Source: Thermodesulfovibrionales bacterium
GTDB lineage: Bacteria > Nitrospirota > Thermodesulfovibrionia > Thermodesulfovibrionales > UBA6898
Assembly (NCBI GenBank): GCA_020056455.1
Contig: JAGVHR010000157.1
Coordinates: 1 to 33,064 of the forward strand
Length of the DNA: 33,064 nucleotides
Reading direction: 5' to 3'
The notes under the pieces were generated by a model that ran no database searches, had not been told where the DNA came from, and was given only the letters and a program-made list of their open reading frames with translations. This document shows, one piece after another, positions 6,662 through 13,753 of this stretch; position 1 is the first letter of the stretch; each line of letters opens with the position of its first letter. A program made the position numbers and the translations under genes.

Positions 6662-9600
6662 TTACACTGAACTCCTGCATCCTGGGCCTGTAATAACACT
6701 GCGGCCGCCTGCTTGGGTAGATACTTGTATTTGTGTGCTGATCCGTTCCTTGAGCGCAGGCACATGAGATATCACGCCGATCAGCTTGCCGTCCTGCTGC
6801 AATCCTGCGAGAGTCTCCAAGGCAGTTTCCAGCGCATCCTCGTCAAGGGTGCCAAAGCCTTCATCAAGGAAAAGAGAATCTACCTGAACATTACGACTGG
6901 CCATATGAGAAAGCCCAAGAGCCAGAGATAGGCTGACGATGAAGCTCTCGCCGCCGGACAGATTCTTGGTAGACCGAATCTCCCCCGCCTGATAGTTATC
7001 GATCACATTGAGTTCCAGCGGTTGCGCGTTATCTCGGATCAAAAGATACCGGTCGGTCATTTTCTGGAGTTGCCGGTTGGCATGACTGACCATCATTTCA
7101 AAGGTCAGTCCCTGTGCAAAATTCCGATATTTCTTTCCATCTGCAGATCCGATCAGCTCGCGTAGATTTTCCCATCGACGGCACTCTTTTTTCTGGGCCT
7201 CGATAGCCGTTTGCTTTGCCTCAATCCGCTCTTTGGCGGCTGTATTTTCACTCAGTTTGTGCTTAATACCGGCAATGACGTCCCGCAGCTCTTTCAGAGA
7301 ATCTTCGTACTCTTTGTATTGCGGCTCCAGTTCCTCAAGAGATTTGTCGGTAACCCTTTTGGCCATTTCCGTAGCCAAACGTGTATCTCTATCTTTTTGT
7401 CTGGCCTTGAGGTCTGTTTGACTATCGTCTATCTTCTTTGCTTTTGAAGACAGTTTATCCCTCTGCTCAGCGGTCAGTATGGCCGCAAGAAACTGTTTTT
7501 CATCCGAAAAGCCGACAGGCCCAAGTGCTGCGGAAAATTCAGTTTCCGCATTCTTCAGTTCCGGTTCTCTCTGGTCGATGCGCTTTTTCAAAGATTCAAC
7601 ATGGGTCTTTGCGGTGCTCCATTTTTGCTGCATTTCATTGTGCCGGTCTCTGGCTGTCTTTTCGGCATCCTCGGCGTCAGAAACAGCCTTGTTCAAGCGA
7701 AGCTCTTCATCGTCGGGACTTTTGTCGCCGTACAATTCTTTCCGCTCATGACTCCCGATGGTGTGATCCTTTTTCAGAGTCTCCAAACGCTCACTTTTCT
7801 CAGCCAAGGCTTTACCTTGGGTTTCAATGACCGCATCAAGACGATTCATCTCACTGTCGAGATCTGCAATCCGCTTCTCGATTCCAGCCTTTTTCTTAAC
7901 CTGGGCCTGCCATGCATTCAGTCGAGCTCTGAGTGACTCAAGCAGTGATGATACATCGGCATCGGGGATTTCCGTGATGCCAAGCGGCAAAAGTTTGGCA
8001 GAGACGGCCAGCCTGCGTTCGGTAAAATCAGTCCGGAGATTTTCCAGGCCTTCCTTCACCTCGGCAAGGGCTTTCTCGGCAGCCTTCTTGTCATTAGCCG
8101 CTGCTGTCTCCTGCTTTTCACCCTCCGTCAGATTATTACGGGCCTTGACCTCAGCTTCTTCCAGTTTCTTGATGGCGGCTTCCTGATCCTCAGCCTTGCT
8201 GATCAGTTTAGTGTGCGCTTCAATCTTCTGTTCGGTTTCATCGGTAACGGGAACATTGCCTTCCGCGAATGGGTGTTCTGTCGCACCACAGAGCGGACAG
8301 GGTTTACCATCTTCCAGTTTGGCCCGGTGGTCTTCAAGCTCCGCTATTTTCGCCAGGAAAGCCATTTCACGAAGCAGGGTTTCCTTCTCGGTGCGGTATT
8401 CACGCAACAGTCGATCCCCCAGCAACTGGCGTAATGCGTCTTTGCCTTGCTGAAGCCTTTTTGATGAGTTGTCCAGCTCCTGCTTCTGAGTGCCGCATTG
8501 CTTTTGGCAATCATCAAGTGATTTTGTCGCTTGTTCCAGCGCCGTCACTGCCTTTTCTCGATCAGCCTTTTTTTGAACGATTTCTTTTTGCCTGGAGATC
8601 AGGCCGCCCAGCTGCTCTTCAACACCGGCCAGCCCGCTGATCAGCCATTCATCCTGTGCATGCTCCTTGAAATGGCTGTCGACAAGTTCAAGAGTTTTTT
8701 GGGCTTCGAAACGTTTTTCCTGCTCTTTAAGTATGGCCTGTTTATCCATAACAATCGTTGCCGCATCTTTTTGGCAGCGCTCTTCACCTTCCGAAACAGC
8801 CTTTTTCTGGTCGGCAAGCTTCTGATCGAGAAAGCGAACCTTCTGAATGAGCGGCGCAGCGGCTTTCAGTTCCTCTTTGACTTTAACAGCCTTCTGTTCA
8901 GCCAATTTCAGCGATTCGGCCTGTCCCTTGGCAGAGGATTCCAGCTTGGGAAGGGCCTCTTCCTCAGCTTTCAGTGCCGTCTGATCATCCACCTGTTGTT
9001 TTCGAATTGCTGTGAGCGTTGCGTATGAGCCATCCAGTGACGCTGCGCTCAAAGCCCGGCTGAGTTTGTCGCGCTCTGGGTTAAAGGCATCGATATCGCT
9101 TTGCAGCTTGCTCGCTTCGTCTGCCAGGCTGATAATTTCCTTCTTCAGGCCATCGATGGCGGTCAGCCATGAAATGGCCTTCCCTGTGTCAGCGAACTTG
9201 GTAGTGAGGTCTGACTCTTCCTTCTGCTTTGACTTGAGTGCCTGTTGAATCTCTTTTTCCTGTTCTGGCTCCAGAATCACAATTCCTGCTATTTCAGCCT
9301 GAAGGATGTTCAGCTTTTCCCGCTCTTCACGCTGGCGTTCATGGACTCGAATCGAAATCTGACTGTAAATCTCCGTTCCGGTGATCTGTTCCAGAATGGG
9401 GGCACGTTTGTCTGGATCTGCCTTTAAGAAAGCATCAAAACCACCCTGAGCAAGGAGCATGGAGCGGGTGAAACGATCAAAATCCATACCGGTTACTGCC
9501 TCGACCTGCTCAGCCACGCCTCTGAGCTTCACCTCAAACACTTTTCCAGATGCGGTATCCGTGATCTCATGCTTAGGTGGCTGCAGTTCTCCGTCTGACT

Positions 9601-12368: not shown

Positions 12369-13753
12369 TTAGCTTGTTCTTCCTCACGTCGTTTTGTTGC
12401 AGCTGCAGCTACAGTGCGAGCTGTCAGGTCTGCCATCTCATCACCAAAAAAATTAGGCGGCCAGTTTTCGATATCTCCGAGCAAGTTAAGACGAAGGGGT
12501 TCCAGTTCCGCCGCCTTGCCGTTGCGCTTACAGAAATATATAGCCACCTCTTCGGGACTAAGGGTACCCTCTGCAACTCGTCTCTGCAGACGATTAAGAA
12601 AATGTTCGGAATGGCTTTCTATAATCAACTGTACGTTTCTATCGTTGCCGTTTTCGCGTGACTTTATGGCGGATATAAATACATCAGCAAGCTCTGCCTG
12701 CACCTGAGGATGAAGATGTATTTCAGGCTGTTCCATCCAAACCACTGACCCTGGAGGGCAATAAAAAGCATCTACCAACACCGGCAGGACTTGCGAAACG
12801 CCAAATCCCACGTCTGTAATTTTCACCTCTGAGGCGCTACTGTGAGTTTTCACCAGTACTTCATACTCCTTGCGACCTTCTGCTACCGGTTTAACTGAAA
12901 AACTGTGAATAATCCCTAAATCTTTCAGCCATCCGGCAATAAATTCTGCAAAATGTTGTTGCTTGCATTTTCGACCACGGTTTAGTTGGCGGCCCTGATT
13001 TTGGGCAGCTAAAAAGGCGGCAATTGTGTATTCGCCTTTGATACCGACATGATCCGGGGTTTCCCCAGACCATGGATAAATTCTTTTAGGATGTTCACGC
13101 AGAGGCCCGAGGTAATAAAAATGATCAAGCATCTGTTCGGCAGCAAGGGCAAAGTCCGAAAGAAATCCTGCGTTTTGGAATCTCGCCCGGCTTTGCTCTG
13201 ACATACGATAAAATTTCTCAGGTTTATCCAATGGCCAACTTCGTCCGACTGTTCGAACAAATTTATAGGCGTTTGATTGCAGATCGAACTGTCCGTCATC
13301 CTTCCGCGAATAAATAACATCCAGAACATCATTCTTTTTTTCTTTCAATAAGAAGCATAGTTCTGTCACCTCAGGCTGATCATTCTTATCTGCCAGCAAA
13401 GTGACATTAAGCTCAAGCTGATCTCCTTTATAGCGTGTCTCCTGTAACGGGTCCTCGACCTTAAGGCCCTGCGGCAGTTTCCAGGCAAGATGAAAGGAGA
13501 GAGGCTGAGAGAGATCATGGTCGTAGATACACTCCTTGAAAGTGCCAAGGTCGATTAAGGAATTAGAATCACCCAAATGTATTGCCCGACGGCGGTCCAC
13601 CGAAAGTGTAGTTTGTTTGAGAGCCAACAGCAAATGCCCCAGGCTACTCTTCCCGGCGCTGTTGGCGCCAAAAATTACAGTGAGAGGAGCAAGTCGAAAC
13701 TTACCGGTATCTTTCCATGCTTTAAAATTTTGAATCTGCAGGGAAGTCAGCAT
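12365..13753 (-). CDS. OLD/ABC-like AAA ATPase with DUF3696-like C-terminus
   Basis: Walker A 'IFGANSAGKSSLGHLLLAL', 'VGFGVSQVLPVLVDA', Walker B region 'VVWMEQPEIHLHPQVQAELADVFI', 'LIIESHSEHFLNRLQRRV', DUF3696-like tail 'LNLLGDIENWPPNFFGDEMADL'. Confidence 0.85.
   Translation of the reverse strand: MLTSLQIQNFKAWKDTGKFRLAPLTVIFGANSAGKSSLGHLLLALKQTTLSVDRRRAIHLGDSNSLIDLGTFKECIYDHDLSQPLSFHLAWKLPQGLKVEDPLQETRYKGDQLELNVTLLADKNDQPEVTELCFLLKEKKNDVLDVIYSRKDDGQFDLQSNAYKFVRTVGRSWPLDKPEKFYRMSEQSRARFQNAGFLSDFALAAEQMLDHFYYLGPLREHPKRIYPWSGETPDHVGIKGEYTIAAFLAAQNQGRQLNRGRKCKQQHFAEFIAGWLKDLGIIHSFSVKPVAEGRKEYEVLVKTHSSASEVKITDVGFGVSQVLPVLVDAFYCPPGSVVWMEQPEIHLHPQVQAELADVFISAIKSRENGNDRNVQLIIESHSEHFLNRLQRRVAEGTLSPEEVAIYFCKRNGKAAELEPLRLNLLGDIENWPPNFFGDEMADLTARTVAAAATKRREEEQAK

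What the first reader, a model, noticed from the sequence alone, without database searches (positions are those of the whole stretch)
6662..13753. Candidate undescribed system: DUF3696-like ATPase + PIN nuclease + RNA ligase coupled to SbcD-SbcC
Seen directly: five minus-strand genes with almost no spacing. ATPase/PIN overlap 4 bp (12365-12368), PIN/ligase overlap 4 bp (11856-11859), ligase to sbcD 6 bp, sbcD to sbcC 11 bp. Established: OLD/ABC-like ATPases paired with a nuclease form several anti-phage systems (Septu, Gabija, PARIS), PIN domains are usually RNases, and RNA ligases repair tRNAs cut by PrrC-type nucleases. Inference: the ATPase senses an intruder and licenses the PIN nuclease to cut host or phage RNA, the ligase reverses the damage, and SbcCD attacks or processes DNA ends. 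I know of no described system with exactly this gene set, but no search was run.
Basis: partly seen in the sequence, partly recalled or inferred. Interest (0 to 1): 0.82.

Follow-up and report, generated by a model that had tools for sequence, protein, structure and literature searches.

The report
RNA-cutting defence pair with RNA ligase
Three genes here (an ATPase, a predicted RNA-cutting enzyme and an RNA-joining enzyme) form a recurring, mobile cassette inside bacterial anti-phage gene clusters, suggesting a defence that cuts RNA and carries its own repair tool; the two DNA-repair genes next to it are a local neighbour, not part of the cassette.

Summary
They split into two units. (1) The ATPase and PIN genes match PADLOC's candidate system HEC-03 (B 439 bits, A 80 bits). 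The third gene, a 233-aa RNA ligase with no PADLOC model, follows the pair in 65 of 75 informative loci from other species; 5 more have PIN + ligase without the ATPase. Catalytic residues are conserved in 63 aligned triads. The cassette sits inside restriction loci (Eco57I/MmeI-type, type III, and between hsdS and hsdR in a type I locus) and also stands alone on plasmids. ATPase and PIN diverge together (rho 0.84), but the ligase does not follow them (0.09): ligases 86% identical accompany ATPase-PIN pairs only 33%/24% identical. The ligase therefore behaves as an exchangeable repair or antidote enzyme. (2) SbcD-SbcC is absent from all 80 other ligase loci (69 with at least 3 kb downstream); SbcD is absent from genus-mates. 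It is a separate cargo of the 20.8-kb island inserted between nifS and mtgA. Best reading: a restriction-embedded RNase module whose damage a dedicated ligase can reseal. Function is inferred, not shown.

The parts
12365..13753 (-). DUF3696-type ABC/OLD-like ATPase (HEC-03B homologue, 462 aa); Walker A GANSAGKSS, EQPEIHLHP motif
   Evidence: Pfam AAA_15 83.7 bits, DUF3696 32.3 bits; PADLOC HEC-03B 439 bits, next NsnB 210; motifs conserved in 63 loci
11856..12368 (-). PIN-fold nuclease (HEC-03A homologue, 170 aa); acidic residues D8, E54, D111, D114, D135
   Evidence: PADLOC HEC-03A 80 bits; no Pfam hit; AlphaFold pLDDT 92 and Foldseek best hits are PIN proteins (VapC, SMG6, HARP), E 0.02-0.06; residues conserved in 63 loci
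11158..11859 (-). Single-domain ATP-dependent RNA ligase (PF09414, 233 aa); nucleotidyl Lys45 in EEKVDGAN
   Evidence: Pfam RNA_ligase 113.9 bits; Foldseek to RNA ligases (2vug, REL1, NgrRnl, T4 Rnl2; E 1e-7 to 2e-6); K45/D47/G48/E105/E183/R198/K200 invariant in 63 loci; no PADLOC model
9922..11151 (-). SbcD (Mre11-type nuclease, 409 aa): adjacent island cargo, not part of the conserved cassette
   Evidence: TIGR00619 211 bits; absent from 7 genus-mates; absent from all other ligase loci
6662..9910 (-). SbcC (Rad50-type ATPase with CPLCG zinc hook, 1082 aa): adjacent island cargo
   Evidence: PRK10246 SbcC 589 bits (below the curated cut-off 750), TIGR00618 369 bits (below 478.5); motifs GPTGAGKTT, CPLCG, LSGGE, LFLDEGFGTLDE read from sequence
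14147..14740 (-). Zeta-toxin-like kinase (197 aa), embedded module
   Evidence: Pfam Zeta_toxin 48 bits
13984..14160 (-). 58-aa ORF overlapping the zeta gene by 14 bp, possible antitoxin partner
   Evidence: ORF list; role inferred from position only
14754..18530 (-). MmeI/Eco57I-type adenine methylase (DrmMI-like, 1258 aa), island backbone
   Evidence: Pfam Eco57I, MmeI_Mtase, MmeI_TRD; PADLOC DrmMI 788 bits
18548..18979 (-). VapC-type PIN toxin (143 aa), embedded TA module
   Evidence: Pfam PIN 40 bits
18976..19221 (-). 81-aa ORF overlapping vapC by 4 bp, probable VapB-type antitoxin
   Evidence: ORF list; role inferred from position
19278..22127 (-). SNF2 helicase (DpdE/DrmD-like, 949 aa), island backbone
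   Evidence: PADLOC DpdE 581 bits; NCBIfam DrmD 315 bits, below its cut-off 610
22130..27217 (-). Large DEAD/MZB helicase (DruE-like, 1695 aa), island backbone
   Evidence: Pfam DEAD, Helicase_C, MZB; PADLOC DruE3 265 bits
6629..27454 (.). 20.8-kb island inserted between nifS (ends 6628) and mtgA (27455-28276)
   Evidence: In 6 genus-mates nifS and mtgA lie 0.24-1.6 kb apart

Best explanation
The locus carries a horizontally mobile 'cut and reseal' cassette: ATPase + PIN ribonuclease (HEC-03 type) with an ATP-dependent RNA ligase, embedded in a restriction-like helicase/methylase island. Shown here: gene order, recurrence, embedding in several kinds of restriction loci, conserved catalytic residues, co-divergence of ATPase and PIN, and exchange of the ligase between divergent ATPase-PIN pairs. 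Inferred: the ABC-type ATPase holds the PIN nuclease and releases it when infection, or failure of the neighbouring restriction system, is sensed. The PIN enzyme then cuts an essential RNA, most plausibly tRNA, stopping translation. Because metal-dependent PIN cleavage is expected to leave 5'-phosphate and 3'-hydroxyl ends, the lone ligase can rejoin them without a kinase or phosphatase. It would thus act as antidote, lowering the cost of leaky or mistaken activation and allowing recovery. SbcD-SbcC is a separate cargo pair of the same island that happens to follow the cassette.
For: Triad in 65 of 75 informative ligase loci, PIN+ligase in 5 more; median gaps 0 and 4 bp. Triad also alone on plasmids of Azotobacter, Tistrella, Aeromonas and Rhodococcus and on viral-classified contigs. 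Embedded in hsdM-hsdS-[triad]-hsdR and in type III and MmeI-type loci. ATPase-PIN rho 0.84, ATPase-ligase 0.09; L038/L049 ligases 86% identical with ATPases 33% and PINs 24%. Other RNase-type partners of the same ligase family: RloC-like AAA_13 in L003, a different PIN in L067. ATP-grasp-type RNA ligases need 5'-P/3'-OH ends (PMC7824862). T4 repairs PrrC-cut tRNA with kinase plus ligase, and PrrC is invariably linked to type Ic R-M (PMC2610378).
Against: No activity of any of the proteins is shown. Some HEC-03-type pairs lack the ligase (Acinetobacter soli plasmids; G304), so it is not obligatory. One paper states that VapC-type PIN toxins leave 5'-OH ends (PMC6459853), which a lone ligase could not seal. 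The ligase lacks a C-terminal accessory domain, so nick sealing is uncertain. The PIN fold match is below strict significance (best Foldseek E 0.02). The target RNA is unknown. The ligase loci were selected by similarity to the window's ligase, which narrows the ligase distance range.
Confidence: 0.5

Rival explanations
1. The ATPase-PIN pair is the defence, and the ligase is a general RNA-repair enzyme that counters RNA damage from elsewhere (other tRNA-cutting systems, colicins, phage nucleases) and travels with defence islands without acting on the PIN products.
For: The ligase is exchanged between divergent ATPase-PIN clades, follows a RloC-like protein in L003 and stands without either partner in L010 and L076; distant homologues occur in jumbo phages.
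Against: 70 of 75 informative loci place the ligase directly after this PIN family, with overlapping or nearly overlapping genes; a general repair enzyme would not need this partner. Within the window's clade its distances track the PIN (rho 0.66).
Confidence: 0.2
2. All five genes form one system: SbcDC processes invading DNA ends while the RNase arm and ligase act on RNA.
For: Gaps of only 6 and 11 bp. SbcDC is island-borne rather than resident: SbcD is absent from genus-mates. In G081 a related SbcDC (SbcD 63% identical) follows a type III R-M locus with a PDC-S06/AAA_13 gene by a 4-bp overlap, and in G008 it lies by PemK, AlbA_2 and ParA genes.
Against: No sbcC or sbcD hit in any of 80 other ligase loci, 69 of them with at least 3 kb downstream; the triad is complete without it on plasmids.
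Confidence: 0.1
3. The cassette is a toxin-antitoxin-like addiction module (PIN toxin, ligase and/or ATPase as antidote) maintained by its own selfish stability, with no dedicated anti-phage role.
For: It stands alone on plasmids, and the window island also holds VapBC-like and zeta-like pairs; a TA reading was also considered for HARP + Rnl3 (PMC12153264).
Against: Recurrent embedding inside restriction operons and a large ATPase of a family common in defence systems favour immunity.
Confidence: 0.15

Closest known systems
PADLOC HEC-03 (candidate; HEC-03A + HEC-03B)
   Same: Both models match, the PIN (80 bits) and the ATPase (439 bits), adjacent on one strand
   Different: No RNA ligase model in PADLOC; here the ligase follows the pair and is exchanged between pair types; the host locus here is a DruE/DpdE/DrmMI-like backbone, not the helicase/m5C-methylase/ATPase Hma operon described in PMC8565338
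PrrC / RloC anticodon nucleases in R-M loci, with T4 Pnk + Rnl1 repair
   Same: RNase module inside restriction loci, also between hsdS and hsdR; RNA ligase as counterpart; the ligase family itself follows a RloC-like protein in L003
   Different: Nuclease is a separate PIN protein plus a DUF3696 ATPase, not AAA_13; the ligase is host-encoded in the same operon and has no kinase/phosphatase
PARIS (AriA ATPase + AriB Toprim tRNase)
   Same: ABC-type ATPase paired with a predicted metal-dependent RNase
   Different: AriA model only 89 bits vs 439 for HEC-03B; nuclease is PIN, not Toprim; ligase added
HARP (PIN-type RNase P) + Rnl3 RNA ligase (PMC12153264)
   Same: A PIN-superfamily RNase genetically linked to an ATP-dependent RNA ligase
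   Different: No HARP match and Rnl3 far below cut-off (TIGR01209 32.5 vs 136.9 bits); ATPase present; co-directional and in defence loci
SbcCD (Rad50-Mre11) exonuclease
   Same: SbcD and SbcC domains and motifs intact
   Different: Island-borne, SbcD missing from genus-mates; not linked to the triad elsewhere

Membership tests
HEC-03 (PADLOC candidate) | HEC-03B ATPase | tested here: met
   439 bits over residues 1-454, best of 80 families
HEC-03 (PADLOC candidate) | HEC-03A protein | tested here: met
   80 bits, only PADLOC hit
HEC-03 (PADLOC candidate) | A and B adjacent on one strand | tested here: met
   4-bp overlap; same order in relatives
HEC-03 (PADLOC candidate) | Antiviral activity | not testable with these tools
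   Needs an experiment; no paper found that tests HEC-03
PrrC/RloC | AAA_13-type ATPase fused to anticodon nuclease domain | tested here: not met
   No AAA_13 hit in the window genes
PARIS | AriB Toprim nuclease or AriAB fusion | tested here: not met
   No AriB hit in PIN or ligase; AriA model weak
Gabija / Septu | GajB helicase or PtuB HNH partner | tested here: not met
   Partners are PIN and RNA ligase; only weak ATPase-level hits to GajA
Menshen | NsnA and NsnC with NsnB ATPase | tested here: not met
   NsnB 210 bits only; PIN and ligase give no NsnA/NsnC hit
HARP-Rnl3 pair | PF09745 HARP and Rnl3 (TIGR01209) | tested here: not met
   No HARP hit; TIGR01209 32.5 bits vs cut-off 136.9
DISARM (island backbone) | drmA + drmB + drmC with drmD/drmMI | tested here: not met
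   DrmMI-like methylase and DrmD/DpdE-like SNF2 present; large helicase best matches DruE, no DrmB/DrmC hit among the hits shown
SbcCD | SbcD family and SbcC/Rad50 ATPase with zinc hook | tested here: met
   TIGR00619 211 bits; SbcC_Walker_B 43.7 bits, CPLCG hook; SbcC equivalog/subfamily cut-offs not reached

The most novel reading that the evidence does not exclude
A bacterial immune cassette carries its own RNA-repair antidote: a restriction-embedded ATPase-PIN RNase cuts host RNA on alarm, and an RNA ligase in the same operon reseals exactly those cuts, making the response reversible; the ligase is a shared antidote that several unrelated RNase effectors plug into.
Probability: 0.35. Interest if true: 0.82.

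Novelty: new variant of a known kind. Interest (0 to 1): 0.6.

Why it matters
RNA repair by a ligase is best known as a phage weapon against host tRNA cutting. A ligase built into the host's own RNA-cutting defence operon would mean that some RNase-based immunity is reversible, and would turn the question of how bacteria survive false alarms into a two-enzyme test. It also gives the uncharacterised HEC-03 candidate a predicted nuclease (PIN), a predicted end chemistry and a predicted third component.

Tried and rejected
Five-gene system with SbcDC: rejected as general, 0 of 80 other ligase loci. SbcDC as resident housekeeping copy: rejected, 7 genus-mates lack SbcD and the pair is inside the island. 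Known-system matches (PARIS, Gabija, Septu, Menshen, HARP-Rnl3, PrrC): tested and not met. RNA element in the window: Rfam gave only sub-threshold chance hits. Promoter and terminator scans were near the shuffled expectation (promoters 10 vs 8.8; terminators 14 vs 9.1), so transcription units were not inferred. E. coli genomes: no DNA match to the Lelliottia triad. Phages: only ligase relatives of at most about 30% identity. PDB sequence search with PIN and ligase gave no usable relative. The preprint on embedded defences (Payne et al. 2024) and an RNA-repair review were not held, so a published mention of the ligase cannot be excluded. DefenseFinder models were not available.
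Full report
What is there. The five minus-strand ORFs, their overlaps and gaps are exactly as reported. Pfam gives AAA_15/DUF3696 for the 462-aa protein, RNA_ligase for the 233-aa protein, SbcD and SbcC domains for the last two, and nothing for the 170-aa protein. PADLOC identifies the ATPase as HEC-03B (439 bits) and the 170-aa protein as HEC-03A (80 bits); the ligase has no PADLOC model. 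An AlphaFold model of the 170-aa protein (pLDDT 92) matches PIN-domain proteins best (VapC, SMG6, HARP), at modest significance (E 0.02-0.06). The ligase model (pLDDT 87) matches RNA ligases (archaeal homodimeric ligase, REL1, Naegleria ligase, T4 Rnl2) at E 1e-7 to 2e-6.

Surroundings. The genes lie in a 20.8-kb block between nifS and mtgA. In six genus-mates those two genes are only 0.24-1.6 kb apart, so the whole block, SbcDC included, is an acquired island. Upstream on the same strand are a DruE-like MZB helicase, a DpdE/DrmD-like SNF2 helicase and a DrmMI/MmeI-like methylase, interrupted by a VapC gene with an 81-aa upstream ORF and a zeta-like kinase with a 58-aa ORF. DISARM is not met: no DrmB or DrmC hit. 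The ligase is absent from 60 relatives.

The triad is conserved. A scan of named species genomes with a ligase alignment gave 80 loci. With profile searches, 75 have enough upstream sequence. Of these 65 carry ATPase-PIN-ligase in that order and strand, 5 carry PIN-ligase without the ATPase (L057, L070, L072, L074, L080), and 5 have neither: L003 has a RloC-like AAA_13 gene, L067 a different PIN with an XRE/M78 regulator, L056 another AAA protein, and L010 and L076 no recognisable partner. This tally is mine, from the listing, and excludes five loci cut off by a contig end (L009, L013, L016, L020, L069). Median gaps are 0 bp (ATPase-PIN) and 4 bp (PIN-ligase). Ligase Lys45 and six further motif residues, PIN E54/D111/D114 and the ATPase Walker lysine are invariant in 63 aligned triads; D8 is kept in 62, D135 is Asp or Glu. 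Triads also stand alone on plasmids of Azotobacter, Tistrella, Aeromonas and Rhodococcus. In Aeromonas caviae the ligase alone is split by an IS256-type insertion. Viral-classified contigs hold three triads (L156, L158, L159).

Starting from the PIN instead of the ligase, 9 of 12 plasmid records have the ligase next to it (one of the nine is the IS-split copy); the three near-identical Acinetobacter soli plasmids do not, and carry helicase-methylase-ATPase-PIN-HNH. In the window's phylum G270 has the ligase, G304 does not, and the G094 contig ends. The ligase is therefore frequent, not obligatory.

Restriction embedding. Among 52 same-strand upstream neighbours, 8 are Eco57I/MmeI-type methylases, 5 ResIII, 3 HsdS; among 38 downstream neighbours 9 are HNH_2 nucleases. 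L014 reads hsdM-hsdS-ATPase-PIN-ligase-hsdR, and L048 has a DNA methylase and a Res subunit upstream of the cassette. Of 53 loci with 8 kb upstream, 15 carry a homologue of the window's methylase or SNF2 helicase. The hsdS-hsdR gap is also where DarTG2 is embedded in EPEC (PMC12255303), and PrrC is invariably linked to type Ic R-M (PMC2610378).

The ligase moves on its own. Across 63 triads ATPase and PIN identities correlate at rho 0.84, ATPase-ligase at 0.09, PIN-ligase at 0.08. Two ATPase-PIN clades share 33% and 26% identity between them, yet their ligases are 64% identical, as similar as within a clade. Within-clade identities of the three proteins are alike (0.58-0.66, except PIN 0.47 in clade 2), so slow ligase evolution does not explain this. 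L038 and L049 have ligases 86% identical but ATPases 33% and PINs 24%, in the same methylase/HNH setting. Within clade 1 the ligase does follow its partners (0.61-0.66), so exchange is occasional. The loci were chosen by ligase similarity, so the rate of exchange cannot be estimated.

SbcDC. No sbcC/sbcD hit occurs in the 80 loci (69 with at least 3 kb downstream), although the same search finds SbcD at 27-33% identity elsewhere. In the window's class only G000, G008, G081 and five genomes of one genus have a close SbcD; no SbcC was found beside SbcD in the loci of that genus that were checked. G081 places SbcD, with a 4-bp overlap, after a type III R-M locus with a DUF1016 nuclease and a PDC-S06/AAA_13 protein; G008 places it by PemK, AlbA_2 and ParA genes. 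SbcDC may thus be a recurrent cargo of defence islands here, but three cases in one class are too few to claim a system.

Mechanism. Shown: anatomy, recurrence, conserved active sites, modular exchange. Inferred: the ATPase gates the PIN RNase; activation is tied to infection or to failure of the neighbouring restriction system; the RNA target is probably tRNA; the ligase reseals the cuts. ATP-grasp-type ligases need 5'-P/3'-OH ends, and ends left by metal-independent RNases need a kinase and phosphatase first (PMC7824862). A metal-dependent PIN nuclease would supply the right ends directly, which would explain why the operon has a ligase and no healing enzymes. The two-metal Toprim tRNase AriB leaves such ends (PMC12409363). 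Against this, PMC6459853 states that VapC toxins leave 5'-OH ends; if that holds for this PIN, resealing by the ligase alone fails. This is the sharpest test.

Known or new. The ATPase-PIN pair is the PADLOC candidate HEC-03; HEC stands for Hma-embedded candidate, from the 'guilt-by-embedding' approach (PMC12988326). What is added is the predicted PIN identity of HEC-03A, the RNA ligase as a frequent third gene, and its exchange between effector types. I judge it a new variant of a known kind. The held library does not include the original preprint, so prior mention of the ligase cannot be ruled out.

Noticed in passing
L149 3859-14235 (G081): Type III R-M + DUF1016 nuclease + PDC-S06 (AAA_13) overlapping sbcD-sbcC by 4 bp: a second case of SbcDC at the tail of a restriction locus with a possible RNase-type ATPase.
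   Followed up: partly
window 14754-27217; L035, L036, L018, L043, L052: DruE-like MZB helicase + DpdE/DrmD-like SNF2 + MmeI-type methylase (often with a downstream HNH_2 nuclease) recurs as a backbone that fits no tested system name.
   Followed up: partly
L003 1453-7444: RloC-like AAA_13 gene followed by the same RNA ligase family, then SLFN/AlbA_2, ParA-like and HNH_2 genes; an AlbA_2-ParA pair also lies next to SbcDC in G008 (L093).
   Followed up: partly
window 13984-14740: Zeta-toxin-like kinase with a 58-aa overlapping ORF; a 71%-identical zeta homologue also lies near an ATPase-PIN pair in G304 (L094).
   Followed up: no
window 18548-19221: VapC gene with an 81-aa overlapping upstream ORF (VapB-like) inserted between the SNF2 helicase and the methylase.
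   Followed up: no
L122 4538-6600 (Aeromonas caviae plasmid): An IS256-type element interrupts only the ligase of an otherwise intact triad: a natural ligase-broken variant.
   Followed up: no
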